A program made the position numbers and the translations under genes. A DNA stretch of 61,718 bases from a virus. Under the pieces are notes generated by a model. The model worked only from the letters and a program-made list of their open reading frames with translations, made no database searches and was not told the DNA's origin. Where the stretch lies: the IMG/VR virus record IMGVR_UViG_3300025324_000012, positions 1 through 61,718 of that record. The stretch is one strand, 5' to 3'. Positions 2,297 to 43,012 of the stretch are shown in pieces (the first letter of the stretch is position 1; each line of letters opens with the position of its first letter).

Positions 2297-2458
2297 TTAA
2301 CTCTCCCAACCAACTTGCAATTTAGATATCTGCTTTTCGCTTTTCAAAAGCAGCCAACCACTAAATTTGTTCGTGGCAAGAACAATTATTAGGCTCAAAC
2401 AGAATAGCCATGTGAATGCCCCTCTCCACGCTTGATTCCATAACCCTGAAATTGTCAT
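2297..2458 (-). CDS. Small single-span membrane protein (53 aa)
   Basis: The protein has one clear hydrophobic segment (residues about 14-30, WLFCLSLIIVLATN) followed by a basic C-terminus. The ATG overlaps the stop of the preceding gene (TAATG), and the stop lies immediately before the RNA ligase start, so it is a coupled cistron. The function is unknown. Confidence 0.65.
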   Translation of the reverse strand: MTISGLWNQAWRGAFTWLFCLSLIIVLATNKFSGWLLLKSEKQISKLQVGWES

Positions 2459-2670
2459 TAAATCTGCCTCAAAGAGAAGTTGCCGCCGTGTTTCTTCACG
2501 TAGTCCTCACCTTCACACTTGGCTGAGTCTGCCAAGAAATGCTCTTTGCTTAATAAGACTTTACGTGAAATGGGAGTGGCTTGCCAGTATACCTGCCAGA
2601 TGTTAGAAGTCAATTCTCTTCCAACTTTTCTAGTTAAGTAATGTCTGCGCCCGTATACTATAGGTTCCAT
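2458..2670 (-). CDS. Hypothetical protein (70 aa)
   Basis: A basic, tyrosine- and tryptophan-containing small protein without a family I recognise. It is kept as a gene because its start overlaps the upstream stop (TAATG at 2670) and its stop overlaps the next start (TAATG at 2458). Confidence 0.6.
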   Translation of the reverse strand: MEPIVYGRRHYLTRKVGRELTSNIWQVYWQATPISRKVLLSKEHFLADSAKCEGEDYVKKHGGNFSLRQI

Positions 2671-2957
2671 TATTGTTCTCCCAGAACTTCTTTCAGAAAT
2701 GGGACGACTGGAAGCAATTTTTCAATTTCTACTATCAAAAGTAATTTCAGACGTCTGTCGTCAGGCCGACGAAATTTTTCTAATTCTCGTGGGGAGTAAC
2801 AAACTCCAGCCGCAGAGAACATTCCATTTGATATTAACATTACTGGCAGGTACCCTTTTGGAATATCTTCCCATTTTGTGTTTATTGGGGCTGTTATGCC
2901 TTCTCTGTGTAGAAAGACTTCTTTTTCTTCATTTGGTGGGTTTATGTAGTATCCCAT
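2670..2957 (-). CDS. Hypothetical protein (95 aa)
   Basis: A short soluble protein with an N-terminal GYYINPPNEEKEVF segment and a leucine/valine-rich C-terminal helix. There is no recognisable domain. It is translationally coupled on both sides by TAATG overlaps, which supports it over the opposite-strand frame that covers the same bases. Confidence 0.65.
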   Translation of the reverse strand: MGYYINPPNEEKEVFLHREGITAPINTKWEDIPKGYLPVMLISNGMFSAAGVCYSPRELEKFRRPDDRRLKLLLIVEIEKLLPVVPFLKEVLGEQ

Positions 2958-3082
2958 TATTTCTCCCTCTCAATACGTTTAGGAGTAACAGGCACGCGGA
3001 CGGGGTTCCGCGTGGGAAATGGAATTGATACCGGTTGAGGCTTCGGTACCTCTATGATTCGTAGTGGTTTGCCTACTTCCAT
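2957..3082 (-). CDS. Very short proline-rich protein (41 aa)
   Basis: The reading frame begins MEVGKPLRIIEVPKP and is rich in Pro, Val and Arg. The layout suggests an unstructured or beta-strand peptide. Both ends overlap neighbours: the ATG at 3082 abuts the 150-residue gene, and the stop shares bases with the start at 2957 (TAATG). The function is unknown. Confidence 0.55.
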   Translation of the reverse strand: MEVGKPLRIIEVPKPQPVSIPFPTRNPVRVPVTPKRIEREK

Positions 3083-3534: not shown

Positions 3535-3692
3535 TTGGTTTCAAGGTTTGGCTGCGCGGCTAAGTTTAGTTGTGCGGCTAACTGTTTAGCCTGAAGCTCT
3601 GTGAATGGAACTTGAATATAGTCATAACCATCTGCCACTAGCCAGTATGATTGACCAATGAATTTAACTGCTTGATATCTTAAAGATGCCAC
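3531..3692 (-). CDS. Small hypothetical protein with GTG start (53 aa)
   Basis: A GTG-initiated frame begins inside the 3' end of the SNF2 gene, with AAGGGTGG about 6 bases upstream. The product starts (M)ASLRYQAVKFIGQSYW and ends in a Gln/Ala-rich helix. Its stop overlaps the next ATG (ATGA). The function is unknown; the tight overlaps on both sides are the main evidence. Confidence 0.5.
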   Translation of the reverse strand: MASLRYQAVKFIGQSYWLVADGYDYIQVPFTELQAKQLAAQLNLAAQPNLETK

Positions 3693-5251
3693 TTAGCACC
3701 ACCCTTCGCTAGTAGTATTTGAGCTAGTTCTTTTATCACACTACTTTCTTCCCAATCACTCGCTACACCATCGAGTGCCGTACCAGTAATAGATCGTTTC
3801 TTCTCGACTAATTCTGCAAAAAACTCATCAATGGTCCCTACTGCGATAAAGTATGTGGCTACAGTCTTGGCCACTTTTTGGCCTAAGCGAGCCAAACGTG
3901 CCTCTGCATTTTCTTCTTTCTTAGGATTCCATTGACGTTCTAGGATTATCGACTCAGAACATACTTCCTGTAAGCCGTCTAATCCCTCACCTCCAGCAAG
4001 CGTCGAAGCGATCATGAATCGTGATCGTTCGTTCTTAATGAAGTCTTGGACTACACCATCCCTCTCGCTCATGCTTAACTGTGCTGAGAGTTCAGTACAC
4101 TTGTCGTAGCCTAGCTTAACCAGCATTTCATTAAGTCTAGCTACTAGAAGTTTGGCTACGTCAAGATGATGCAGGAAAATTACTAGCTTCCTGCTGCCAT
4201 TTGAGGAAAGAAACTCTTCACAAAATTCCACACAAGGATCAATCTTTGCCAAACCAGTGATATGACGTAGTTTGGTCATCTTTACTAAGATGGTATTATA
4301 ACGCTCAAATGATGAACCTTCATTTGAGTTCATAGCTTCAGCAAATGCCTGGAACTCCTTCACGTAAGCTGCTTCTACCTGACCACCCAAATCACAGTAT
4401 TGGTAGTTCCTACTGACTGTTGGGAAATCGTCCATTACGTCTTCAGGACTGCGCCGTATGATGAACGACGCTGTTTTTTTCTTGAATCCCTCAGGATCTC
4501 TTAACCCACCAGATTTGTAGGAATATCCATTCCAATAGTAGTCAACGTCGCGCTGAATGTATCCTGCTTCAGTTGGGAACATATCAGGGCGTATCATATT
4601 CAATATTGGAAAGTATTCGATAGTATTGTTCTCAATTGGCGCGCCACTTAGTCCCAATAAATGAGGAGCCTTGCTAACTAGTTTCCTTACGCGGCCTGTA
4701 CGTTGGGACGCGGTGTTCTTAATCTGCTGGCATTCGTCTAGAATGATCGTCTTGATTCCTAGACGTTCCACCAGATCAAAATCAAATCTTCTTAATCTGT
4801 CGTAGGACACTACGTAGGCCTCGAATCCTTCTAGGACGTCTTTACTGTCGGTAATTACGATAGGAGTTAGACCTGTCCAACGCCAAATCTGGCGCGCCCA
4901 TTGTGTCAAGATCATTGACTTAGCCACGACGATAAACGGCCTAGCTTCTGCGTGAATTTTCATTACTGCCAGGGCTTCTATCGTCTTACCAAGGCCAAAT
5001 CTGTCGGCACAGATTACACGAATGTTACCTGTCTCCGCAAACAAGGCAAAATCCACTTGGTAAGGATATAAACTTTTATTATCGGTGGACCTAATATCTT
5101 CGTATGCTTTACGCGGAGACTCTTCCACGTACTCTGTGACCATTATATGCCCACAGGTTAAGACTAACGCACGCTTACGTCCCAAACGAGACTCTGCTTG
5201 GACGTCTGCGTGTTTCTTGCAGGCTGGGCAGGTTAGTTTAATTGCTGGCAT
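3680..5251 (-). CDS. SNF2-family DNA helicase/translocase
   Basis: A 523-residue two-lobe superfamily 2 ATPase. An N-terminal zinc knuckle is visible (CPAC near residues 8-11, CGH near 33-35). Motif I is FGLGKT (86-90), motif II is DECQ (172-175), and motif III is GLSGAP. In the second lobe, GEGLDGL and ERQWNPKKEENAEARLARLGQ match SNF2 motifs V and VI. Members remodel protein-DNA complexes or branched DNA. In a phage it may act in recombination-dependent replication with the nuclease at 788-1627. Confidence 0.9.
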   Translation of the reverse strand: MPAIKLTCPACKKHADVQAESRLGRKRALVLTCGHIMVTEYVEESPRKAYEDIRSTDNKSLYPYQVDFALFAETGNIRVICADRFGLGKTIEALAVMKIHAEARPFIVVAKSMILTQWARQIWRWTGLTPIVITDSKDVLEGFEAYVVSYDRLRRFDFDLVERLGIKTIILDECQQIKNTASQRTGRVRKLVSKAPHLLGLSGAPIENNTIEYFPILNMIRPDMFPTEAGYIQRDVDYYWNGYSYKSGGLRDPEGFKKKTASFIIRRSPEDVMDDFPTVSRNYQYCDLGGQVEAAYVKEFQAFAEAMNSNEGSSFERYNTILVKMTKLRHITGLAKIDPCVEFCEEFLSSNGSRKLVIFLHHLDVAKLLVARLNEMLVKLGYDKCTELSAQLSMSERDGVVQDFIKNERSRFMIASTLAGGEGLDGLQEVCSESIILERQWNPKKEENAEARLARLGQKVAKTVATYFIAVGTIDEFFAELVEKKRSITGTALDGVASDWEESSVIKELAQILLAKGGAKWHL

Positions 5252-5256
5252 TTTAC

Positions 5257-5436
5257 TTAATTAACTCCCGAAATGGGAAGACCACGTTCTATTCTTCCTT
5301 GCTTTATCAGTTCAAAGGCTTCCTCGTGGGTAAGACATAATGCAAGCTGCAAGGCGTCAGCAGCTATGTCCATTTGATTCTTGATCTCTTTTGGGTTTGT
5401 TAGAACAAGTTCGTTCTTTGTAAGTTCTTTAATCAT
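5257..5436 (-). CDS. Small helical protein (59 aa)
   Basis: The frame starts MIKELTKNELVL and is mostly helical and charged, without cysteines. The ATG overlaps the stop of the 553-residue gene (ATGA), and the stop lies 6 bases before the SNF2 start. The function is unknown; it could be a partner of the helicase. Confidence 0.6.
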   Translation of the reverse strand: MIKELTKNELVLTNPKEIKNQMDIAADALQLALCLTHEEAFELIKQGRIERGLPISGVN

Positions 5437-7094
5437 TTTTTCTTCCTGTCTTCAAGTAACTTCTGCCAGGCAACTTCTGCTCTAGCTCTATCATAATCGT
5501 GAGCGAGCATCATGGCCTGAATACCTTTTTCATTCTTATCGGCAGCAGTAATTTCTTTCTTCTCTCTTGCTTTCTTGATCTTTTCACTACTGATAAGAGA
5601 CCCAACCTCTTTCCACTCCTGCCGCATACGTTGTTTCTCATCGTCGTCTAATGCGTCAAACCGCGCCGCACGTGCTTTCCTAGTACCTTTACTGCGCCCA
5701 ATGTATTCTGTGGCTAATGCATCCATTTCTTTGATGCGAGCCTCAATTTCTTCATCACTGAGGTTCTTACAGTAATTTTCTTCCTCAACAATGAAAAATA
5801 ATTGATTCTTGTCTAGGATGGGAGCGTTCATCATTTTCTGCTCAGAACGATGAGTCTCTAATCTCATAAACTCGTCCCTTACTTCTTGTCTAATTCGTTC
5901 GCAGGACGAACAAATGGCCTCTTCGGTTGTGAAAATCGCACAACCATGTAAAACATCTACATCCTTTGGAACGAGATTATGCGTCCAAGTCTTGTAGCAT
6001 TTAGGACATTTATGATAGCACTTTGGAGATTTTCTCAAATCCCCAACTACTGTCATAACACGTCCTATGCCACAAAATTCGCATCGGGGAACAGGACCAG
6101 CACCGTCTTCGTCTACGTAGGCGGACCATGGAATTTCTCCTATGAACTCATGGGAGCAGTGGTTACAGATTCTCTTGGCATTGCTTGCTATTGAGCTTTT
6201 TTCACTAGGTGAGCTTTCACCCACTTCCGAGCCTGTTTGTCTGTCATGTCGAATGCATTCTTTGTTGCTTCCACTACTTTCTGGTGTTTCGTCTTCTTTT
6301 TCTTGGCTTTCATTTGATTCTCCTTTGGGAGTAGAGGCATCAACTAAACCCTTAATATGGCCAAACATTCTTGGGTGTTTTTCAGACAACTCTAGTTGAG
6401 CATCGTCAAACGCAGCAATCCGCGCTGTTGAATCTAAACCTAACTCCTCATTAGACTGGGGACAGTCTGGCCCTGTGTTGGCAATAAGAGGAGTTAGGAT
6501 AGATTCTTCTGTTGGATTAACAGAACTTAAAATTGACGGTGACTCAACCTCAACTACCCTGGAGGGTATAGGGAGGGAGTCACCGTCAGTCTCCTGAGGT
6601 TGGACAGGAGACTCCTTTGCTGCTAGTGCAGCAGCAATTTCATCAAATGATTCATGGTGGAATGTTTTGCTTAATTCAGAAGTAAGGGATTCTGCTCCTT
6701 CTGGGTTGACGCCTTGGGCGCTTACGCTAGCACTATCACACAAGCGTGAATCATCTAATCCAGAAGTGGAAGATTCACTTTCTTTTTGTTCTCCTTGTGG
6801 GAGATTAACAGAATCCCTTGATTCCCCCTCTTTATGAACTTCCATATTATCTATAATAAGTGAGGAGGAATCAAGCGATTCTGATTCTACTTCAGGCGAC
6901 AAAGAATTGGGCATATTGGCGTCTATCGGCCCTACTTCAGTTTCTGACGGAATAGGGTGATAATCTGAGGTTGGTTCTTGAAGCCTGACTTCTGATTCAA
7001 GCAGAGCAATCTCATATTTGAGACGCTGATATGTAGCAGTATCACGTCTTAAGGCTGCCCTGCTCATTTCTCGTCTTTTTTCGTCGATTGTCAT
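5433..7094 (-). CDS. Large Ser/Glu-rich protein with four CxxC zinc knuckles (553 aa)
   Basis: After a short charged helix, residues about 40-300 are low complexity, rich in Ser, Glu, Pro and Asp, and look disordered. A central zinc region follows with CNHC, CEFC, CPKC and CSSC pairs (roughly residues 312-400). The last 150 residues are highly charged and helical with many Lys/Arg/Glu. I know no family with this architecture. It could be a scaffold-like nucleic-acid-binding protein. Its ribosome site is inside three exact tandem 9-bp repeats (7095-7121). Confidence 0.75.
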   Translation of the reverse strand: MTIDEKRREMSRAALRRDTATYQRLKYEIALLESEVRLQEPTSDYHPIPSETEVGPIDANMPNSLSPEVESESLDSSSLIIDNMEVHKEGESRDSVNLPQGEQKESESSTSGLDDSRLCDSASVSAQGVNPEGAESLTSELSKTFHHESFDEIAAALAAKESPVQPQETDGDSLPIPSRVVEVESPSILSSVNPTEESILTPLIANTGPDCPQSNEELGLDSTARIAAFDDAQLELSEKHPRMFGHIKGLVDASTPKGESNESQEKEDETPESSGSNKECIRHDRQTGSEVGESSPSEKSSIASNAKRICNHCSHEFIGEIPWSAYVDEDGAGPVPRCEFCGIGRVMTVVGDLRKSPKCYHKCPKCYKTWTHNLVPKDVDVLHGCAIFTTEEAICSSCERIRQEVRDEFMRLETHRSEQKMMNAPILDKNQLFFIVEEENYCKNLSDEEIEARIKEMDALATEYIGRSKGTRKARAARFDALDDDEKQRMRQEWKEVGSLISSEKIKKAREKKEITAADKNEKGIQAMMLAHDYDRARAEVAWQKLLEDRKKK

Positions 7095-7121
7095 TTTCCA
7101 ACCTTTCCAACCTTTCCAACC
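7095..7121 (-). repeat. Three tandem 9-bp repeats in the translation-initiation region
   Basis: Immediately upstream of the ATG of the 553-residue gene the unit GGTTGGAAA (minus strand) is repeated three times without a mismatch. Each unit contains a GGAAA core, so copy number could tune ribosome binding or spacing. Confidence 0.85.
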
Positions 7122-7203
7122 AGAATTCTTCTTTGTTACTATCTAGAACAAAGAGTTTACTTCTGAGCTTTCCTTACCTTCTAGGGTTGCCCGCAGGAAA
7201 CCA

Positions 7204-7953
7204 CTAAGAGATAGTGGTAAGTTGTAAGATTTTTTTCGCTGTATAGACAAACATTCTTTTATTATATGGGTCTCTTTTAATTGAGCTATCCTCATAATCT
7301 ATTCTTAATTCTACTTCTCTAAATTCAAACAAACTCTCTTGTCCTTCACCACAAAGAGTAAACACTTTTATTTTTGATTTGAGGGGTTCCTGGATCATTT
7401 GGTGGGAGAGAATCCCATTCCCATAAGCCCTAAAAAGACCTAGAACATCTTCTCCATTCTTGTCTTTCAAGAGCTTAACTAGGCAACGAGACATCATTTG
7501 TCCCCCTCTATCAGGAACAAAAATGATGGCTAGATTTGGGTCGGCACAGTGTTGTGGTATATCATCCTTAAAACAACCAGCACTAAGATTCTTACAGGTT
7601 GTAAAATGTTTACTCATACTCATTCTAGCTATGTCACTTGCTTTACAGCTAAAAATGAGTCTTCTCTCACCAAGATTCTCCAAGAATTTCGCTATTCGAT
7701 CTAAAGAGAATCTTAGGTTTTGGAGAGATTTACTCAACTTAGATCCTGAGGGGATGTACTTTGTATATCTTGTCTTGTCATCCCAGAGGGTTTGAGCAGA
7801 GTTGAGTAGTTCTTCATCATCTCCCCAATAACTAGAGATGGAGTAAGATCCTTCAAGAGAACGGAGAATTGGATTGCGATGATTAAACTGAATTCTTTTG
7901 TAAAGGCCGTGTTTGCTTAGAAGTTTCTTCACTCTAGCAAAATTGCTTCGCAA
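7204..7953 (-). CDS. Hypothetical protein with conserved-looking Cys core (249 aa)
   Basis: The start is a TTG preceded by AAGGAG at 7 bases, a strong site. The protein has a central segment (SCKASDIARMSMSKHFTTC, then DPNLAIIFVPDRGG) that recalls a group of phage proteins of unknown function with a short SxxxxxxSC motif followed by a beta-rich half. I cannot name the family with confidence. No membrane segment or signal is seen. It is the first full-length gene of the leftward block below the control region. Confidence 0.7.
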   Translation of the reverse strand: MRSNFARVKKLLSKHGLYKRIQFNHRNPILRSLEGSYSISSYWGDDEELLNSAQTLWDDKTRYTKYIPSGSKLSKSLQNLRFSLDRIAKFLENLGERRLIFSCKASDIARMSMSKHFTTCKNLSAGCFKDDIPQHCADPNLAIIFVPDRGGQMMSRCLVKLLKDKNGEDVLGLFRAYGNGILSHQMIQEPLKSKIKVFTLCGEGQESLFEFREVELRIDYEDSSIKRDPYNKRMFVYTAKKILQLTTIS

Positions 7954-8000
7954 TTTCTTTCTCCTTTCTTGCCAATGATTCTCTCAACGTCTGTTTTCAC
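7929..8000 (-). pseudogene. 23-codon frame duplicating the MKTDVERII N-terminus
   Basis: A GTG-initiated frame encodes MKTDVERIIGKKGERNC and stops inside the next gene. Its first nine residues, and 24 bases of DNA, equal the start of the 59-residue gene at 10560-10739. It overlaps the stop of the gene at 7997-8182 (GTGA). It may be a truncated duplicate that now serves as a translational bridge to the TTG start at 7953. Confidence 0.45.
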
Positions 8001-8182: not shown

Positions 8183-8312
8183 TTTGCCTTCTTTTGTTTG
8201 ATAACTCAATGCGCCCACTACTTTCACAGTTTCACTACTTTCTAAGGTAGTCATACTTGTGTGGTTTTCGTATGTGGGCGGATTCAATTATCAAATTAGT
8301 CAGTATAAATCA

Positions 8313-8445
8313 AACCTGCAACCACTTGGAGACCTGACTCTTTTCGATGGGCAAGCTGGTGAGTCCAGTTGCAACTGGCTTCCGAGGCCTCTACCATCAT
8401 AAAGAACTACAATCCAAGAGTCAGATCTCCAAGTCGTTCCAGGTT
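8313..8445 (-). ncRNA. Structured element A: long-stem leader or RNA
   Basis: Two arms (8325-8342 and 8416-8433) pair over 18 positions with one mismatch. The stem continues outward with AACCTG (8313-8318) and CAGGTT (8440-8445). Inside are GATGG/CCATC (8346-8350 with 8394-8398), the palindrome CCAGTTGCAACTGG (8365-8378) and GAGGCCTC (8384-8391). This gives a multi-branch fold on either strand. It lies downstream of the minus-strand promoter at 8581-8610 and upstream of the gene ending at 7997, so a 5' leader is likely. There is no U-tract after the stem. Confidence 0.5.
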
Positions 8446-8580
8446 ATCCCCCTTGTCTCAGGAGAATTTCATTCGGGGCAATTCCATCCGAAATCTGGCT
8501 TCATTCCATCCCATAGCTTGCCTGATTCCGGCCAAAGAATTGTTCTAAACTGTTCATTTTCTTCAACTAAGCGCGAACCT

Positions 8581-8610
8581 ATCCTAACATGGGGATAGGG
8601 ACCTTGTCAA
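8581..8610 (-). promoter_or_regulatory. Leftward promoter TTGACA-N18-TAGGAT
   Basis: On the minus strand TTGACA (8610-8605) is followed after 18 bases by TAGGAT (8586-8581). This is a near-consensus sigma70-type promoter that would start transcription near 8574, toward element A and the leftward genes. Two further TTGACA boxes lie upstream at 8639-8644 and 8691-8696, but with poorer -10 matches. Confidence 0.55.
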
Positions 8611-8628
8611 TATGTAAGATTTACATAG

Positions 8629-8643
8629 TGACAATTTGTGTCA
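8629..8643. promoter_or_regulatory. Operator-like inverted repeat TGACA-N5-TGTCA, copy 1
   Basis: A perfect 5-bp inverted repeat with a 5-bp spacer. One half site is part of a minus-strand TTGACA box (8639-8644), so a bound protein would block a -35 element. The second copy is 52 bp away, about five helical turns, which would place both on the same DNA face. Confidence 0.5.
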
Positions 8644-8680
8644 ATATATGATAAATGGTAGTTTCCCATAAATCATAGGC

Positions 8681-8695
8681 TGACATAAAGTGTCA
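8681..8695. promoter_or_regulatory. Operator-like inverted repeat TGACA-N5-TGTCA, copy 2
   Basis: Same inverted repeat and spacer length as the site at 8629-8643, again overlapping a minus-strand TTGACA box (8691-8696). The pair could bind a phage repressor or a replication initiator; no candidate regulator gene is obvious. Confidence 0.5.
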
Positions 8696-8730
8696 ATTGT
8701 TTTTCATATAGAGATAGCTGTAAGTTATTG

Positions 8731-8791
8731 ATAATAATATACATATAATATATATATATAATAATATATATATAAATATATATATATAAAA
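8731..8791. other. A/T-only block, possible DNA unwinding element
   Basis: Sixty-one bases contain only A and T apart from one C (8742), with runs of alternating TA. Together with the flanking repeated sites this is what a duplex-opening element of a replication origin looks like. No initiator gene has been identified. Confidence 0.5.
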
Positions 8792-8925
8792 CACTTAACT
8801 CATCCGAACATTAAGGGTTAGTACTACTAACTCGGTACTAGAGGGTAAACAGGGAAAAGTTACCATGTACATTTTACCATTTCCTAGCCTGCCCATACCC
8901 TTACTCCCCTACCTTTCCCCTAACC

Positions 8926-8939
8926 TATTGATTCTGTTA
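8926..8939. repeat. 14-mer TATTGATTCTGTTA, copy 1
   Basis: The same 14 bases occur at 11853-11866 in the other control region. In both places a TAGTACTA motif lies about 90-107 bp to the left (8819-8826 and 11762-11769). This suggests a shared regulatory module. Confidence 0.5.
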
Positions 8940-9024
8940 TACTTAAGCATCATAAGTACGTAGGAAACAAGCCAGAACAGTATCAGAATAGGGTCAGATT
9001 CAAGTAGGAAACGGAACGAATTAA

Positions 9025-9186: not shown

Positions 9187-9198
9187 TTTAATTCACAG

Positions 9199-9226
9199 AA
9201 AAGAGGGTTTAACCTAATCCACCCTC
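9199..9226 (-). terminator. Rho-independent terminator after the 139-aa gene
   Basis: On the minus strand GAGGGT (9226-9221) pairs with ACCCTC (9208-9203) and is followed by TTTT (9202-9199). It lies 18 bases after the stop of the gene at 9244-9663. Confidence 0.65.
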
Positions 9227-9243
9227 AAAGGTGCTTTCCGTCG

Positions 9244-9663
9244 TTAGACGGCCAGTCCGCGATCAGTACGACCCTTGACAACGATCTCCCGTGCTTCGGA
9301 CTCGGAGATTCCTAAAGCCACAGCAAGTGCTCGCGAGGCTTTGTCAATCTGCTTGCCAGGACCCTCTACTTGTGCCTCAAGTGTGCCGGCAAGTGCTGAC
9401 CGTATCCCCAGGTCGTGGGAAGAATTGACATGCTGACAGAGAACCTCCTCTGTTTCATACTTCTTTGCTTCCGTTGACCAGTTTGCTGCTACTGCCGTGA
9501 AAATGGCAATAGCGTGGTCGAGGGTTTCGGCGTTATTCCGCTTGAAAGGCATAATGTAATCTACGCCTCCGACGGTACGCTTGAGTTCCTTCTCAACCAC
9601 TGGTGCGTCAGTTGTAACAGTCTTGTCTACCGTAGGTAGACGAGTTGCTTGTGTTTCAGCCAT
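9244..9663 (-). CDS. Hypothetical protein (139 aa)
   Basis: A soluble protein with a Thr/Val-rich N-terminus, GGVDYIMPFKRNNAETLDHA, and a helical C-terminus (EAREIVVKGRTDRGLAV). AAAGGAGGAATAA in front of the ATG is one of the best ribosome sites in the window, so high expression is likely. A terminator follows. I do not recognise the fold; an early regulator or DNA-binding role is possible but unsupported. Confidence 0.7.
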   Translation of the reverse strand: MAETQATRLPTVDKTVTTDAPVVEKELKRTVGGVDYIMPFKRNNAETLDHAIAIFTAVAANWSTEAKKYETEEVLCQHVNSSHDLGIRSALAGTLEAQVEGPGKQIDKASRALAVALGISESEAREIVVKGRTDRGLAV

Positions 9664-9722
9664 TTATTCCTCCTTTCATCTCATATAAGTAAATTGACGT
9701 TTTGAGATACGTCAAAGTGTTC

Positions 9723-9841
9723 AAAAAGCGAACGATTCTGATCTTTGTTAGGGTGTAAGATCTATTTTACCAATTTACACCATAACCACAGTTTGGTATA
9801 TTCTGTGCTAACAAAGATCAGAATCCTTCGCTTGCTTCCAT
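9723..9841 (-). ncRNA. Structured element B: candidate small RNA with own promoter and U-tract
   Basis: Arms of 25 bases (9727-9751 and 9808-9832) pair with a single mismatch. Within the loop, GGTGTAA/TTACACC and CACAG/CTGTG form two more hairpins, so the whole folds as a closed stem with two branches. On the minus strand the closing stem is followed directly by TTTTT (9727-9723). A promoter (9848-9876) lies just upstream, predicting an RNA of about 120 bases from 9841 to about 9723. It could alternatively be an attenuator in the leader of the 139-residue gene, which also has a weaker promoter-like TTGACG-N17-TTACTT at 9715-9687. Confidence 0.6.
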
Positions 9842-9847
9842 TCCTTA

Positions 9848-9876
9848 AGCATACCTTAAGGCTAAGCAAAAGTCAA
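9848..9876 (-). promoter_or_regulatory. Promoter TTGACT-N17-TATGCT for element B
   Basis: On the minus strand TTGACT (9876-9871) and TATGCT (9853-9848) are separated by exactly 17 bases. Initiation is expected near 9841, nine bases before the closing stem of element B. A small CCTTAAG/CTTAAGG inverted repeat overlaps the -10 box. Confidence 0.6.
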
Positions 9877-9893
9877 GGTATTTCTTTGGGAAA

Positions 9894-9936
9894 GGGGATG
9901 GCATAAAATGGTATCATGCCACTTTTTGTCATCCCC
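9894..9936 (-). terminator. Hairpin E, possible terminator after the 72-aa gene
   Basis: GGGGATG (9894-9900) and CATCCCC (9930-9936) enclose a second pair GGCAT/ATGCC (9900-9904 with 9916-9920). It starts six bases after the stop of the gene at 9942-10160. The U-run after the stem is only three long, so termination is uncertain; it may act as a 3' stabilising hairpin. Confidence 0.4.
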
Positions 9937-9941
9937 GCGCC

Positions 9942-10160
9942 TTAAAGATTCCGCCATTGAATGCCCGAAATTGTCTTTCTTGCCTCTTTTGGGTTCGACG
10001 GCGCAAGGTTAATCGACGCCGCTATCATTTGTGCACCGTAGTGAAGCTCTAACTTTTGAGCTTCCCTTGCAATTAGTGCAGCAATCTGGGCCATTTCGCC
10101 TATTGGTGACTTGAAGTCGGCGTCGTGAACTGCCCAGTAGCAGTCTCTCATTCGTGGCAT
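9942..10160 (-). CDS. Hypothetical protein (72 aa)
   Basis: Starts MPRMRDCYWAVHDADFKSP and is mostly helical. The start shares bases with the stop of the 58-residue gene (TGATG), indicating coupled translation. There is no recognised domain. Confidence 0.65.
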   Translation of the reverse strand: MPRMRDCYWAVHDADFKSPIGEMAQIAALIAREAQKLELHYGAQMIAASINLAPSNPKEARKTISGIQWRNL

Positions 10161-10336
10161 CAGATTTTCCTCGTCGGTTTTAGGATCAGCTTGTGGCTGT
10201 CCATGGTGGGTTTAGATACAGAGCACAAGTCAATGAAATGCCCTTGCTCGTTGATTGTGATTTGTGTCCACGTATACTTGTCATAAGTCGGCAAGTAAAT
10301 GCGAGTCCAGCCCCTGTTGTCTCGGTCGTATCTCAT
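10160..10336 (-). CDS. Hypothetical protein (58 aa)
   Basis: Starts MRYDRDNRGWTRIYLPTYD, a basic, aromatic-rich small protein. AAGGAGGTGAGG lies 9 bases before the ATG, a strong site. It is coupled to the 72-residue gene downstream. The family is unknown. Its leader contains element C. Confidence 0.65.
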   Translation of the reverse strand: MRYDRDNRGWTRIYLPTYDKYTWTQITINEQGHFIDLCSVSKPTMDSHKLILKPTRKI

Positions 10337-10372
10337 GTGATTTTCCTCACCTCCTTTCCTGACGTTAGAAAC

Positions 10373-10445
10373 ATCATTCCACGCTCAACTACGATTTTGT
10401 ATGGTTACCCTTTCTTGAAGTGTAGCATGTTGAGCGTGGGATGAT
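10373..10445 (-). repeat. Structured element C: 17-bp inverted repeat
   Basis: Arms 10373-10389 and 10429-10445 pair over 16 of 17 positions around a 39-base loop. It sits in the leader of the 58-residue gene, directly after element D. No clear U-tract follows; it may be a regulatory leader or protein-binding RNA. Confidence 0.5.
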
Positions 10446-10465
10446 ATTCCCACGAAAGTATGCTC

Positions 10466-10553
10466 AAAACTAGACTCAAGGTTCTTCTCTCATTCTGCGC
10501 CTACGTGGGTAGGCGACTTACAATATGAGCCAGTTTCGCTTGAGTCTAGTTTT
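10466..10553 (-). ncRNA. Structured element D: nested hairpin RNA or bidirectional terminator
   Basis: Arms 10466-10480 and 10539-10553 are perfect 15-bp complements that begin with AAAA and end with TTTT, so the closing stem is flanked by a U-run on both strands. Inside are CTCAT/ATGAG (10489-10493 with 10525-10529) and CGCCTAC/GTAGGCG (10498-10504 with 10509-10515), giving one long nested stem. A promoter-like TTGGCT-N16-GATAAT (10594-10567) could start an RNA near 10560. Element D ends the 59-residue gene's transcript or is a small RNA. Confidence 0.5.
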
Positions 10554-10559
10554 CAGCAA

Positions 10560-10739
10560 CTAGCGGATTATCAAATTCCCGATGAACAAGCCAACGTCTT
10601 TCACGTCGTTGACATACGCTGCGCGCACAATAACGCCGCGCTTATCCTCAGTAACACGCCGACCAACCATTGCGTCTTTGTCAGGCTTTGGTTTGGGTGT
10701 GTAGAGTGAGTTGATGATTCTCTCAACGTCTGTTTTCAT
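10560..10739 (-). CDS. Hypothetical protein MKTDVERII-type (59 aa)
   Basis: Starts MKTDVERIINSLYTPKPKP and has a beta-rich second half with several DV pairs. GGAGGGATAATCTAA precedes the ATG. The first nine residues are repeated in a short frame at 7929-8000, showing a local duplication. A promoter-like pair for element D lies within its 3' end. The function is unknown. Confidence 0.65.
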   Translation of the reverse strand: MKTDVERIINSLYTPKPKPDKDAMVGRRVTEDKRGVIVRAAYVNDVKDVGLFIGNLIIR

Positions 10740-10786
10740 TTAGATTATCCCTCCTTCGCGCATCCCATTTGAATGCGCGATATTGC

Positions 10787-11119
10787 TTACTGCTTCGCCT
10801 GAGCCTTTGTTGGCTCAGCGGTTAGACCAGTGTAGTCAAACGCTGATTCCGTTTGGGAACCGATGCCCAGGGCGAAACGTACTTTCGCCTGTGTAGCTTC
10901 CGACAGTCCCTCCTTCGCCATGCGCAGGAGTACAATGCCCTCCAAGCGCGCGGTTTCGGATTTGACCTTGCTCTCGATGGCTGCCTGCACTAGGCCGGCG
11001 ACATCATTTCTGGACCGTGCCGCTTGCAGCAGCTTGCCTAAACGATTCACCGTGGACATGCCGAAGATCACTTCGATTGCTTTGAGCAGAATCTGGTCAC
11101 GTTCGTTACGTTCGTTCAT
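10787..11119 (-). CDS. Hypothetical helical protein (110 aa)
   Basis: The start at 11119 (MNERNERDQILLKAIEVIFG) is chosen because GGAGG lies 7 bases upstream; the longer frame to 11146 has no site. The protein is almost entirely helical with repeated charged residues and ends in TKAQAKQ. No family is recognised; it could be a small DNA- or protein-binding early factor. Confidence 0.65.
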   Translation of the reverse strand: MNERNERDQILLKAIEVIFGMSTVNRLGKLLQAARSRNDVAGLVQAAIESKVKSETARLEGIVLLRMAKEGLSEATQAKVRFALGIGSQTESAFDYTGLTAEPTKAQAKQ

Positions 11120-11195
11120 GGTAATCCTCCAGGTTTGATAGTACATCCGTTTAATGGGATGCCCGAAGGAAAGATAATCCGTTAGTATGCCCTTT

Positions 11196-11214
11196 GCGCA
11201 GGGTATACCTGCGC
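11196..11214 (-). repeat. 7-bp GC hairpin between early genes
   Basis: GCGCAGG and CCTGCGC enclose a 5-base loop just after the stop of the 125-residue gene. No U-tract follows on the minus strand. It may protect the 3' end or pause transcription. Confidence 0.4.
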
Positions 11215-11219
11215 TAATT

Positions 11220-14043: not shown

Positions 14044-15249
14044 ATGTATTCTGATCTTGTTTCATACAAACAAATTGAGAAGTTAGAGGCAGCCTCGGGC
14101 ATAAAGCTTGCCCGAACTGACTTTAAGCAAGTAGCTGAGTGGAAATCTCGTCTTGGTGAAGTTAAGCGTGACCTCACGACCGAAGAACAGTTCTTCGTTC
14201 GCAACGAGACCTTAGTTTCGATGCTCGATTTTAACTATTGGGCACCTCGTTATTGCTACATTGACTATGATGGCTCTGAGGGTGGTGGAATTGGACCCTT
14301 GAAGCTATGGGATAGTCAAATAGTAATGATGAATATTGTTGCCCGCGCCGAGGAGCGAGCTTTTGAGGCATTTAATCGTCAGGAACCAACCGATGGAGTG
14401 CGAGTAATAGACCATAAAGCGCGGCAATTGGGTGGGACTGCCATAGCCCGCGCAATGACGACTCATCGTCTTACCCTCCACAAAGACATACGTGCTATGT
14501 CAGCATCCGTTGATGAAGATAAGATCAAAGAACTTTACGATCGTGATAAGATCATCTACGACAACCTCCCTTGGTGGCTAAAGCCTTCCCTCGATAAGAA
14601 AGAGGGTGGATATGATGTTAAAGCACAGCATATTCACTTTGAGGGGCTTCATTCCCGAATCCTTTACCAGCACTCGCAACAGAAAACAGGAATGGGTGTA
14701 GGTCGTCATTGGGACATTGCCCACCTCACCGAATGCAGCGCCTGGAAAGCTCCTGAAATGGATATTGAGTTAAATTTCTTTCCAGGACTTTCTCAATACT
14801 GGATGACGTTGTGTATCCTAGAATCCACTGCGCTGGGCAGGGGAAATTGGTGGCATGACTTCACTGAACGCGTCCGTAGGGGTAAGATTCCTGGTTGGTC
14901 TTACTGTTTTGTCCCTTGGTATGCAGAGGGGAAGAAGTATCGCAGACAGCCTCCTAAAGATTGGGTTCCAGATCCTCTATCTCTAGAACATGCTAAGCGT
15001 GTTTATGCCACGTCAATGGAGTTCGTTGGCAAGCAGGTTAGTCTCCCCTGGGAGCAACTTTATTGGTATGAGACTACTCGTAGGCAGTATCTTGAAGGAA
15101 ATAAGCTAAACCATTTCCTTACTTCTTATGCGTCAACTCCTGAGGAATCATTCCAGCATACTACTCAAAGTGGATTCAGTACTCAAATACTTGAATGGGC
15201 TGATCTTCATACTAAGATGGGGCAGCCTTTTGAATTGGAGGTTGCTTAA
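14044..15249 (+). CDS. terL-N: Terminase large subunit, ATPase half (401 aa)
   Basis: Contains the ATP-binding motif HKARQLGGTAIAR (about residues 124-136), a classic terminase Walker A variant. Walker B and catalytic carboxylate lie in DIAHLTECSAW (224-234), where Thr replaces the usual Asp before Glu230. The coupling motif is LESTALGRGNWW (259-270). Together these form the DNA translocation motor. The gene stops after the linker (QTTQSGFSTQILEW region) that normally leads into the nuclease domain. That domain is encoded separately at 15656-16480, with an unrelated gene between. The junction is TAATG-coupled. Confidence 0.9.
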   Translation: MYSDLVSYKQIEKLEAASGIKLARTDFKQVAEWKSRLGEVKRDLTTEEQFFVRNETLVSMLDFNYWAPRYCYIDYDGSEGGGIGPLKLWDSQIVMMNIVARAEERAFEAFNRQEPTDGVRVIDHKARQLGGTAIARAMTTHRLTLHKDIRAMSASVDEDKIKELYDRDKIIYDNLPWWLKPSLDKKEGGYDVKAQHIHFEGLHSRILYQHSQQKTGMGVGRHWDIAHLTECSAWKAPEMDIELNFFPGLSQYWMTLCILESTALGRGNWWHDFTERVRRGKIPGWSYCFVPWYAEGKKYRRQPPKDWVPDPLSLEHAKRVYATSMEFVGKQVSLPWEQLYWYETTRRQYLEGNKLNHFLTSYASTPEESFQHTTQSGFSTQILEWADLHTKMGQPFELEVA

Positions 15250-15656
15250 TGTTACGACGTGGATTTTTGTCAGCTTTGGTTGCACCTGCTGTTTTGGCAG
15301 CAAAATCAATACCAGGTAAAGAAGATTCCGACGAATTTTTGTATAAAGGCCTCAAGATCACCTGGTCCGGCTTTTTACCTTCACAGTATAGCGTAGAATT
15401 GGTTGGTTATTGGTTAGCGCTGCGTCCTGATGGATATGGTCTGTATGCTACTACAGGTGGTTTTGGTCAGTTTTATACTCCTTACATGACTATGGATTTA
15501 CGTGTAAGCCATAATTTTCCTAGAGTGACAGCGCAGTCAAGCAATTTAGATAAGCAACAATGTAAAATGCGAGCACGTAATAATATTATTAAAATGTGCA
15601 ATAACCCAGAGGATTTTGAAGGCTCAGACAAGTGGTCTGCTGAGGAAATTGAGTAG
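15249..15656 (+). CDS. Terminase-interrupting protein with Tat-like leader (135 aa)
   Basis: The product begins MLRRGFLSALVAPAVLAA, which looks like a twin-arginine or Sec export signal with an Ala-rich h-region. The body contains a YKGLKITWSG...GYWLALRP segment shared with the product of 12780-13217. There are no endonuclease motifs (HNH, LAGLIDADG, GIY-YIG). It is embedded between the two terminase-half genes with TAATG upstream and TAGTG downstream, so it is co-translated with them. The role is unknown; the hydrophobic start could also be an internal strand rather than a signal. Confidence 0.7.
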   Translation: MLRRGFLSALVAPAVLAAKSIPGKEDSDEFLYKGLKITWSGFLPSQYSVELVGYWLALRPDGYGLYATTGGFGQFYTPYMTMDLRVSHNFPRVTAQSSNLDKQQCKMRARNNIIKMCNNPEDFEGSDKWSAEEIE

Positions 15657-16480
15657 TGAGCAACGTCCAACCATACACGATTGGTTCTCAAGTTTTAGTA
15701 CCTAATTTGAGCCCACAGAATTACGACCAAGATCCGAGAGGATATATCTGGTTGTGGGAGAAACCAATCCATACAGCAACATACGTGATGGCCATTGACC
15801 CGTCAGTTGGACGTACAGGTTGGTGCCGTGCTACACGAACAGAAGACGATTATCGTACAGATAATGGTGCTATTTTCATCATGCGCTGTGGTGTAAATGG
15901 GTTACCTGACACACAAGTAGCTGAATATGCTGGTCCTGTTGATGCAGAAGAAATTGGCACTATTGCCAACGCATTAGGGCGTCTATACGCGGGCAAAGAG
16001 GAAATGGCAATCTGCATCATTGAAATGTATCCCGGTCCTGGCCTTTTAACATATAGGCGAATGATGGATCTAGGATATACCAACCACTTTGTATGGAAAT
16101 ACCTCGACAACGCAGGTGGAGCATTAAAATTCGGTTTCTGGCCAGGGAGGGAATCTAATAAGTACCTCTGGATTAGAGCCTCTCGTCACTTTCATAATAA
16201 GGGACTTGTAGTTAAATCCCCCTGGCTTGTTGAGGAAATGCGTAATTGTGAAGTAGATCCAGTTAAGATGTGGGGCCGCGCCGTATATGGCACGCATGAT
16301 GACCGGGTGCGTGCCATGATGATGGCGTTGTGGGCAGCACATGACTGGTCAATGCAGGTAGATACAGCTACGCCCGTAGTTACAGAGGGTAAAGTAGTAG
16401 ATTGGCAACGCTCAGACATTACTGCTGAACAACTAGCAGATGCCTGGGAGGAAAGATTCTTAGAACTTCAAGAGGCTTAA
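15656..16480 (+). CDS. terL-C: Terminase large subunit, nuclease half (274 aa)
   Basis: An RNase H-fold nuclease domain: YVMAIDPSVG with Asp48, CIIEMYPGPG with Glu123, and THDDRVRAMMMALWAA with Asp215/Asp216. These are the metal-binding residues of terminase headful nucleases. The first 40 residues (DPRGYIWLWEKPIHT) match the linker that normally follows the ATPase domain. The start is GTG, overlapping the previous stop (TAGTG). It must associate with the ATPase half to cut DNA in packaging. Confidence 0.88.
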   Translation: MSNVQPYTIGSQVLVPNLSPQNYDQDPRGYIWLWEKPIHTATYVMAIDPSVGRTGWCRATRTEDDYRTDNGAIFIMRCGVNGLPDTQVAEYAGPVDAEEIGTIANALGRLYAGKEEMAICIIEMYPGPGLLTYRRMMDLGYTNHFVWKYLDNAGGALKFGFWPGRESNKYLWIRASRHFHNKGLVVKSPWLVEEMRNCEVDPVKMWGRAVYGTHDDRVRAMMMALWAAHDWSMQVDTATPVVTEGKVVDWQRSDITAEQLADAWEERFLELQEA

Positions 16481-42605: not shown

Positions 42606-43012
42606 TGGACATATACGAGCAATTGCGTCGTGATGAAGGCTTAAGGTTGAAACCATACCTTGACAGTGTGGGGAAAATGACTATCGGAGTGGGTAGAAAT
42701 CTAACAGATAAAGGTATAACACAAGCTGAAGCTGATAGATTTTTATTTAACGACGTTGATGAAGTTTATGCAGGCCTTGAAGACGCGGGCTACGTTGGTG
42801 GGGTAAATGATGCACGTTATTATGTTCTTGTAAATATGGCCTTTAATATGGGTATTAATGGACTATTAGCATTTAAGAGAATGCTAGCAGCGTACAGGAT
42901 AAGAGATTGGGAGACTGCTGCTACTGAAATGCTTGATAGTAAGTGGGCTACTCAAGTAGGCGCACGATCTGAGCGCCTGGCCCTGCAAATGAGGATGGGA
43001 GAATGGGTTTAA
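42605..43012 (+). CDS. T4-type lysozyme, GH24 endolysin (135 aa)
   Basis: Catalytic triad visible: RDEGLRLKPYLDSVGKMTIG has Glu11, Asp20 and Thr26, as in T4 lysozyme. It hydrolyses the MurNAc-GlcNAc bond of peptidoglycan. There is no signal peptide, so it needs a holin. TAATG coupled to the ejection protein; it may serve lysis or be in the virion. Confidence 0.9.
   Translation: MDIYEQLRRDEGLRLKPYLDSVGKMTIGVGRNLTDKGITQAEADRFLFNDVDEVYAGLEDAGYVGGVNDARYYVLVNMAFNMGINGLLAFKRMLAAYRIRDWETAATEMLDSKWATQVGARSERLALQMRMGEWV

What the first reader, a model, noticed from the sequence alone, without database searches (positions are those of the whole stretch)
9723..9876. Candidate small RNA with own promoter, 25-nt closing stem, two inner hairpins and U-tract
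TTGACT-N17-TATGCT directs an about 120-base RNA that folds into a closed, branched structure and ends in TTTTT. All parts of a free-standing small RNA gene are there, in an early region without known RNA genes.
Basis: seen in the sequence. Interest (0 to 1): 0.75.

Follow-up and report, generated by a model that had tools for sequence, protein, structure and literature searches.

The report
Structured RNA in phage early operon
An uncultivated phage has, between two of its early genes, a short RNA that should fold into a long closed stem with two small hairpins; it is one of several such folds in that region, probably marks where the early messenger RNA is cut or ended, and is not known to act as a free small RNA.

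Summary
TTGACT-N17-TATGCT (9876-9848), a 26-nt closing stem with one G.G mismatch (9808-9833/9726-9751), hairpins 9787-9807 and 9752-9781, and U5 (9723-9727) are all there. The fold beats all 200 shuffles (z -7.8). Only three U lie outside the stem, so the terminator is weak.

The element lies between two minus-strand early genes, in the leader of gene 9244-9663. It is one of four long-stem elements within 2.2 kb near the start of the early operon. No homologue was found. Distant relatives carry different elements of like architecture at a like place; one (L011/L012) is conserved (92%) with two double compensatory changes amid fast-changing genes. The closest relatives lack them.

Most likely it is early-mRNA punctuation: a stem cut by host RNase III and/or a partial terminator, releasing an RNA of about 100 nt. 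A trans-acting sRNA, a regulatory leader, or an assembling RNA (loops complementary over 6 nt, chance 1-3%) remain open. It works like T7 early RNase III sites or T4 PeSLs; membership is untested or unmet.

The parts
9848..9876 (-). sigma-70-type promoter-like site TTGACT-17-TATGCT
   Evidence: 9 of 12 matches; chance density in the region is not low (19 found, 8.3 expected)
9843..9861 (.). palindrome CCTTAAG-N5-CTTAAGG over the -10 box, possible operator
   Evidence: read in the sequence; forms a 7-bp hairpin in the folds; operator role is inference
9808..9833 (-). 5' arm of the closing stem
9787..9807 (-). inner hairpin 1, loop AAUAUACCAAA
9752..9781 (-). inner hairpin 2, loop AUUGGUAAAAUAGAUC; UUGGUA is complementary to UACCAA of loop 1
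9726..9751 (-). 3' arm of the closing stem
9723..9727 (-). U5 run, two of the five bases shared with the stem
   Evidence: read in the sequence
9694..9715 (-). second small hairpin downstream, terminator-like
9669..9676 (-). Shine-Dalgarno sequence AAAGGAGG of gene 9244-9663
   Evidence: read in the sequence
9244..9663 (-). downstream early gene, 139 aa, no family found
9942..10160 (-). upstream early gene, 72 aa
   Evidence: only a Pfam match below the curated cut-off
8313..8445 (-). long-stem element I1 in the gap 8288-9024
   Evidence: (z -5.88)
10366..10452 (-). long-stem element I7, before gene 10160-10336
   Evidence: (z -5.78)
10461..10558 (-). long-stem element I4, just after the stop codon of gene 10560-10739
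   Evidence: (z -7.16)

Best explanation
The element is a cis-acting punctuation mark in the early (minus-strand) transcript. Transcription starts near 9841, or comes from upstream, and runs through a stem of 25 pairs that closes over two hairpins, then into gene 9244-9663. The stem, about two helical turns of nearly perfect dsRNA, is cut by the host's RNase III and/or ends part of the transcripts at its short U-run. This gives a defined, stable 5' end for the downstream mRNA and sets free a compact RNA of about 70-115 nt. Shown here: the anatomy, its excess over chance, its place, and the clustering of such stems near the start of the early operon. Inferred: that the promoter works, that RNase III cuts, and that the released RNA is a by-product.
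For: Place between two same-strand early genes with no promoter-like site listed between the RNA and the next gene. Stem of 25 pairs, fold beyond all 200 shuffles. Four of the five best long inverted repeats of the window lie in early gaps between 8313 and 10558; gap z-scores there are -5.3, -7.9, -7.6, -4.8 and -2.7, against -2.1 to +0.2 in the five distal gaps tested and -1.7 in the short gap 9187-9243. The stems recur while their inner parts differ, as expected if the stem itself is what counts. Wobble pairs in the four window stems favour a minus-strand RNA, 4 G.U against 1 A.C. L011/L012 and L037 have like elements between minus-strand genes before TerL. Known precedents: T7 R1.1 between early genes 1.0 and 1.1 (passages of PMC6121014) and DicF RNA, made by termination and RNase III/RNase E processing (title in the reference list of PMC12197685).
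Against: No transcript data. None of 11 closest relatives with at least 6.6 kb before TerL has a repeat of score >=16 with a loop >=20 there. In L011/L012 the inner part is conserved too, which a mere cutting site would not need. The promoter in register with the stem suits an sRNA at least as well. The phage encodes no RNase III of its own (PF14622), so the host's would be needed; the host is unknown.
Confidence: 0.42

Rival explanations
1. A free-standing small RNA gene: own promoter, compact fold, own terminator, acting in trans on host or phage RNA or protein.
For: Promoter-like site, stem and U-run are in register: expected start ~9841, stem from 9833, U-run at 9723-9727. Very stable fold. 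In L011/L012 an RNA at a like place is conserved in sequence and pairing. PAK_P3 has abundant ~100-nt intergenic RNAs of unknown role (passages of PMC4933390).
Against: Only three U outside the stem. Gene 9244-9663 needs read-through. The neighbouring long stems lack promoter and U-run in register. No convincing target: complementary stretches of 11-13 nt in the window are about what chance gives, and the one at the terL start does not extend.
Confidence: 0.25
2. A regulatory leader: the fold acts in cis on gene 9244-9663 or on the polymerase (attenuator, antiterminator of the put kind, or ligand/protein-binding leader), switching read-through into the early operon.
For: Leader position with U-run and a second hairpin 9694-9715 before the Shine-Dalgarno sequence. 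Three-way junction with complementary loops. RNA A of L011/L012 also lies just before a start codon and keeps its inner sequence.
Against: No Rfam riboswitch or leader at the gathering score, nor any at E<=10. The Shine-Dalgarno sequence lies outside the fold. No alternative fold (antiterminator) was identified.
Confidence: 0.2
3. A packaging-RNA-like or otherwise self-assembling RNA: a three-way junction whose two loops pair between molecules, as in phi29 pRNA.
For: About 120 nt, paired ends, three-way junction, and six complementary bases between loops 1 and 2; chance 0.014-0.028, duplex -6.3 kcal/mol.
Against: No pRNA family among Rfam matches at E<=10. The phage has a terminase-type large subunit, in two genes. 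The stem has a G.G mismatch and no bulge. By eye no such loop pair in RNA A or in the L037 element (folds).
Confidence: 0.03
4. A DNA-level element: the inverted repeats serve replication, recombination or shuffling of early gene cassettes, and the RNA fold is incidental.
For: Inverted repeats cluster in the most variable region. In L011/L012 conserved intergenic islands lie among replaced genes, as described for PeSLs of T4-type phages (citing passages). A further inverted repeat flanks gene 10787-11119.
Against: Wobble pairs favour an RNA of one strand and compensatory changes are seen in RNA A. The elements share no sequence with each other.
Confidence: 0.1

Closest known systems
RNase III processing sites of the phage T7 early region (R1.1 and others)
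   Same: Hairpins between early genes of one strand, in a row near the start of the early operon; dsRNA long enough for RNase III.
   Different: R1.1 is 60 nt with a 4/5-nt internal loop (passage of PMC6121014); here 25 pairs with one mismatch close over a branched core of 56 nt. Cutting is not shown.
PeSL elements (promoter early stem-loop) of T4-type phages
   Same: Early promoter followed by a stem-loop in a gene gap of a variable early region (known to me from passages in PMC4503421 and PMC3950731, and from recall).
   Different: PeSLs are repeated, sequence-related motifs; the elements here share no sequence with each other, and only this one has a promoter right before it.
DicF and other phage- or prophage-derived small RNAs; the ~100-nt RNAs of PAK_P3
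   Same: RNA of about 50-120 nt from a gene gap; DicF is made by termination plus RNase III/RNase E processing (reference title); PAK_P3 passages.
   Different: No transcript, target or homologue known here.
phi29-type packaging RNA (pRNA)
   Same: About 120 nt, closed stem, three-way junction, complementary loops (features from passages of PMC12670572).
   Different: No Rfam match, no CCA-type bulge, terminase-type motor protein, early-operon leader position.

Membership tests
T7-type RNase III processing site | dsRNA stem of about two helical turns between early genes of one transcript | tested here: met
   25 pairs in a gap between two minus genes; co-transcription itself is inferred
T7-type RNase III processing site | cleavage by RNase III | not testable with these tools
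   needs an enzyme assay or end mapping; the record holds no RNase III family match itself (8 of 14 control genomes rang)
PeSL of T4-type phages | early promoter directly followed by a stem-loop in a gene gap | tested here: met
   promoter-like site 9876-9848, stem from 9833; promoter activity not tested
PeSL of T4-type phages | repeated, sequence-related copies in the genome | tested here: not met
   no second copy of the element
phi29 pRNA | match to the pRNA family model | tested here: not met
   no such family among the 5 Rfam matches at E<=10
phi29 pRNA | three-way junction with complementary loops | tested here: met
   6 bp UACCAA/UUGGUA, chance 0.014-0.028
phi29 pRNA | phi29-type packaging ATPase (gp16) in the genome | tested here: inconclusive
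   PF05894 no match, but it rang in none of the 14 controls; a terminase-type large subunit is present instead
phi29 pRNA | CCA-type bulge in the stem | tested here: not met
   the stem has one G.G mismatch and no bulge
Intrinsically terminated bacterial small RNA | stem directly followed by a U-rich run | tested here: inconclusive
   U5, of which three lie outside the stem; not listed by the scan, which allows loops of 3-8
Intrinsically terminated bacterial small RNA | discrete transcript | not testable with these tools
   needs RNA-seq or a northern blot
Any Rfam 15 family | match at the gathering score | tested here: not met
   0 matches in the window
Retron ncRNA | reverse transcriptase encoded in the genome | tested here: not met
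   PF00078 no match in the record; 3 of 14 control genomes rang

The most novel reading that the evidence does not exclude
Phages of this split-terminase group carry, near the start of the early operon, discrete non-coding RNAs defined by architecture and not by sequence: a 20-30 bp closing stem over a branched core. The window's member folds or assembles through a loop-loop contact (UACCAA/UUGGUA) and acts in trans in takeover or assembly.
Probability: 0.12. Interest if true: 0.7.

Novelty: new member of a known kind. Interest (0 to 1): 0.36.

Why it matters
If the stems are processing sites, this uncultivated lineage segments its early mRNA with long-stem elements, and such stems could help to mark early operons in raw phage contigs. 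If the RNA acts in trans, it would add to the few structured RNAs known from phages outside the lambdoid and phi29 types. RNA A of L011/L012 gives a concrete, testable case, because its sequence and pairing are kept while neighbouring genes change fast.

Tried and rejected
Antisense to the terL start: an 11-nt match at 14048-14058 looked striking but does not extend (E 5.6); rejected. Similarity of I4 to 42936-42973 (E 0.002): by my reading the region is coding and the fold there is ordinary; dropped. Homologues of the element by DNA in the phage collection, by the exact 18-nt arm in viral contigs, by covariance model R1 over 81 sources and 1.16 Mb (only itself and its complement): none. Relatives of the downstream protein in viral contigs: none; of 14 early minus-strand proteins in the loci held: none at E 0.01; of two early proteins in 15 records: none, without a positive control. 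RNA A (model R2, 82 sources) was found only in L010-L012 (one further match, L032, at E 5.5); L010 and L011 are identical there, so there are two distinct sequences. TerL in genome contigs: none, so the host is unknown; the nearest named phages infect Tunturiibacter (25.7% identity). RNA A in the phage collection: none. Paper searches for T7 early RNase III sites gave passages only; the two PeSL papers are not held and are known to me through citing passages and recall. The put-site search was read as a listing only.

Full report
What is there. The window is a linear virus record of 61,718 bases. Minus-strand genes run from about 11.8 kb to the left; plus-strand genes (terminase, portal, structural genes) start at about 12.2 kb. 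If the ends meet, the minus genes of 44-61.7 kb continue the early operon; that, and the word 'early', are inference from gene order. The finding lies in the gap 9664-9941 between minus genes 9942-10160 and 9244-9663.

The finding on its strand. The promoter hexamers read on the minus strand (9876-9848). Read that way, an RNA from about 9841 forms a stem of 26-nt arms with one G.G mismatch, hairpin 1 (9787-9807), five bases, hairpin 2 (9752-9781), the returning arm, and U5 at 9723-9727. MFE -48.3 kcal/mol, z -7.8, 0 of 200 shuffles as good. The U-run shares two bases with the stem, so the terminator is doubtful. A palindrome (9843-9861) overlaps the -10 box; it may be an operator.

It is not alone. 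In one search the five highest-scoring repeats with a loop of 20 or more begin at 8313, 9726, 10366, 6809 and 10461; four of these five lie in early gaps between 8313 and 10558, the fifth inside the ORF 5433-7094. Thirty shuffles give a mean of 0.03 repeats of score 20 or more against 3 seen. Gap by gap on the minus strand, with 60 shuffles each: 8288-9024 z -5.3, 9664-9941 z -7.9, 10337-10559 z -7.6, 10740-10786 z -4.8, 11120-11219 z -2.7; 9187-9243 z -1.7; distal gaps 2310-3081 -2.1, 3535-3679 -1.7, 5252-5432 -0.7, 7095-7203 +0.2, 7954-7996 -0.1. Gap borders rest on my hand list of likely genes; 2310-3081 may hold small genes. The elements share no sequence with each other. Three of the four stems carry G.G mismatches (I1 two, I2 one, I4 one), which is unexplained.

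Relatives. TerL (14044-15249) found 9 loci, and a nine-sequence alignment found 79. Of the 50 loci that I scanned, 5 have an inverted repeat of score 20 or more before TerL (L011, L012, L037, L038, L046; in L038 the loop is only 9) and 1 has one after it (L039). Flank lengths differ, so this is only an indication. The 11 closest relatives with at least 6.6 kb before TerL (L004-L009, L021-L023, L026, L049) have none of score 16 or more with a loop of 20 or more; this counts against a clade-wide feature. L046's element lies before a plus-strand gene and folds better on the plus strand.

RNA A. L011 and L012 (TerL 91% alike; 33% to the window) carry a 146-148-nt minus-strand element 4.6-5.0 kb before TerL, just upstream of a minus gene. 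It is 92% identical over the alignment, while the sliding identity of the surrounding stretch is mostly 30-60% from 4.6 to 8.2 kb. Of 52 predicted pairs, 44 are unchanged, 6 change on one side, 2 on both sides, 0 break. The structure was predicted from these same two sequences, so the count leans towards it. Two further islands in the same comparison are a long rod (L012 about 3886-4000; no double changes) and a terminator-like hairpin (about 7388-7508). L037, 77% alike to L012 in TerL, has at a like place a different element of like build between minus genes 334-738 and 991-1413. So architecture and place recur while sequence does not. Whether these are homologous to the window's RNA is not shown: model R1 finds only the window element and its complement, and model R2 finds only L010-L012.

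Strand. Wobble pairs in the window's four stems are 4 G.U on the minus strand against 1 A.C; L011 RNA A 3 against 0; L037 2 against 0; L012 4 against 3 with loosely extended ends; L046 3 against 5. This favours minus-strand RNAs, L046 apart. The numbers are small.

How it most likely works. A transcript that makes gene 9244-9663 should cross the element, because no minus-strand promoter-like site was listed between. A 25-pair stem is a natural RNase III substrate (general knowledge; T7 R1.1 is the model substrate, passages of PMC6121014). I therefore rank mRNA punctuation first (0.42), a trans-acting small RNA second (0.25) and a regulatory leader third (0.20). These overlap: one transcript may be processed and its excised RNA may act, as reported for DicF (reference title seen). 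The loops can form six pairs (chance 0.014-0.028); this keeps a kissing-loop or assembling RNA open but is weak.

Known or new. No Rfam family. The parts are of known kinds; the combination of a promoter-like site, a near-perfect stem and a branched core is a new instance. I made no search aimed at showing that this element is unpublished. Of the papers, I saw passages of PMC12670572, PMC12197685, PMC4933390, PMC6121014, PMC4503421, PMC3950731, PMC3014915, PMC8708148 and PMC11924767, the abstract and outline of PMC9964418, and search listings of the rest.

Noticed in passing
window 14044-15249, 15249-15656 and 15656-16480: The terminase large subunit appears split into two genes, the ATPase part and the nuclease part, with a 135-aa ORF between. 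The two line up in order with one 723-aa protein of Tunturiibacter phage Tunturi_1; both parts recur as separate genes in relatives, 3.5 kb apart in L005.
   Followed up: partly
window 10743-10769 and 11153-11179: A 27-nt inverted repeat (89%) flanks the small gene 10787-11119 (E 1.7e-4 within the window).
   Followed up: no
window 8580-8800: A very AT-rich stretch with TATATA runs and three TTGACA boxes on the minus strand; possible promoter cluster or origin.
   Followed up: no
window 8313-8445, 9726-9833, 10461-10558: All four non-wobble mismatches in these three stems are G.G on the minus strand, near the outer end. Unexplained.
   Followed up: no
L011:3560-3675 and L012:3886-4000 (minus strand): A second conserved long-rod RNA element with TAGAGT/CTCTAG repeats between early genes.
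   Followed up: partly
L046:2267-2405: A long near-perfect stem before a plus-strand gene upstream of TerL; folds best on the plus strand.
   Followed up: partly
window 9843-9861: A palindrome covers the -10 box of the element's promoter-like site; possible repressor operator.
   Followed up: no
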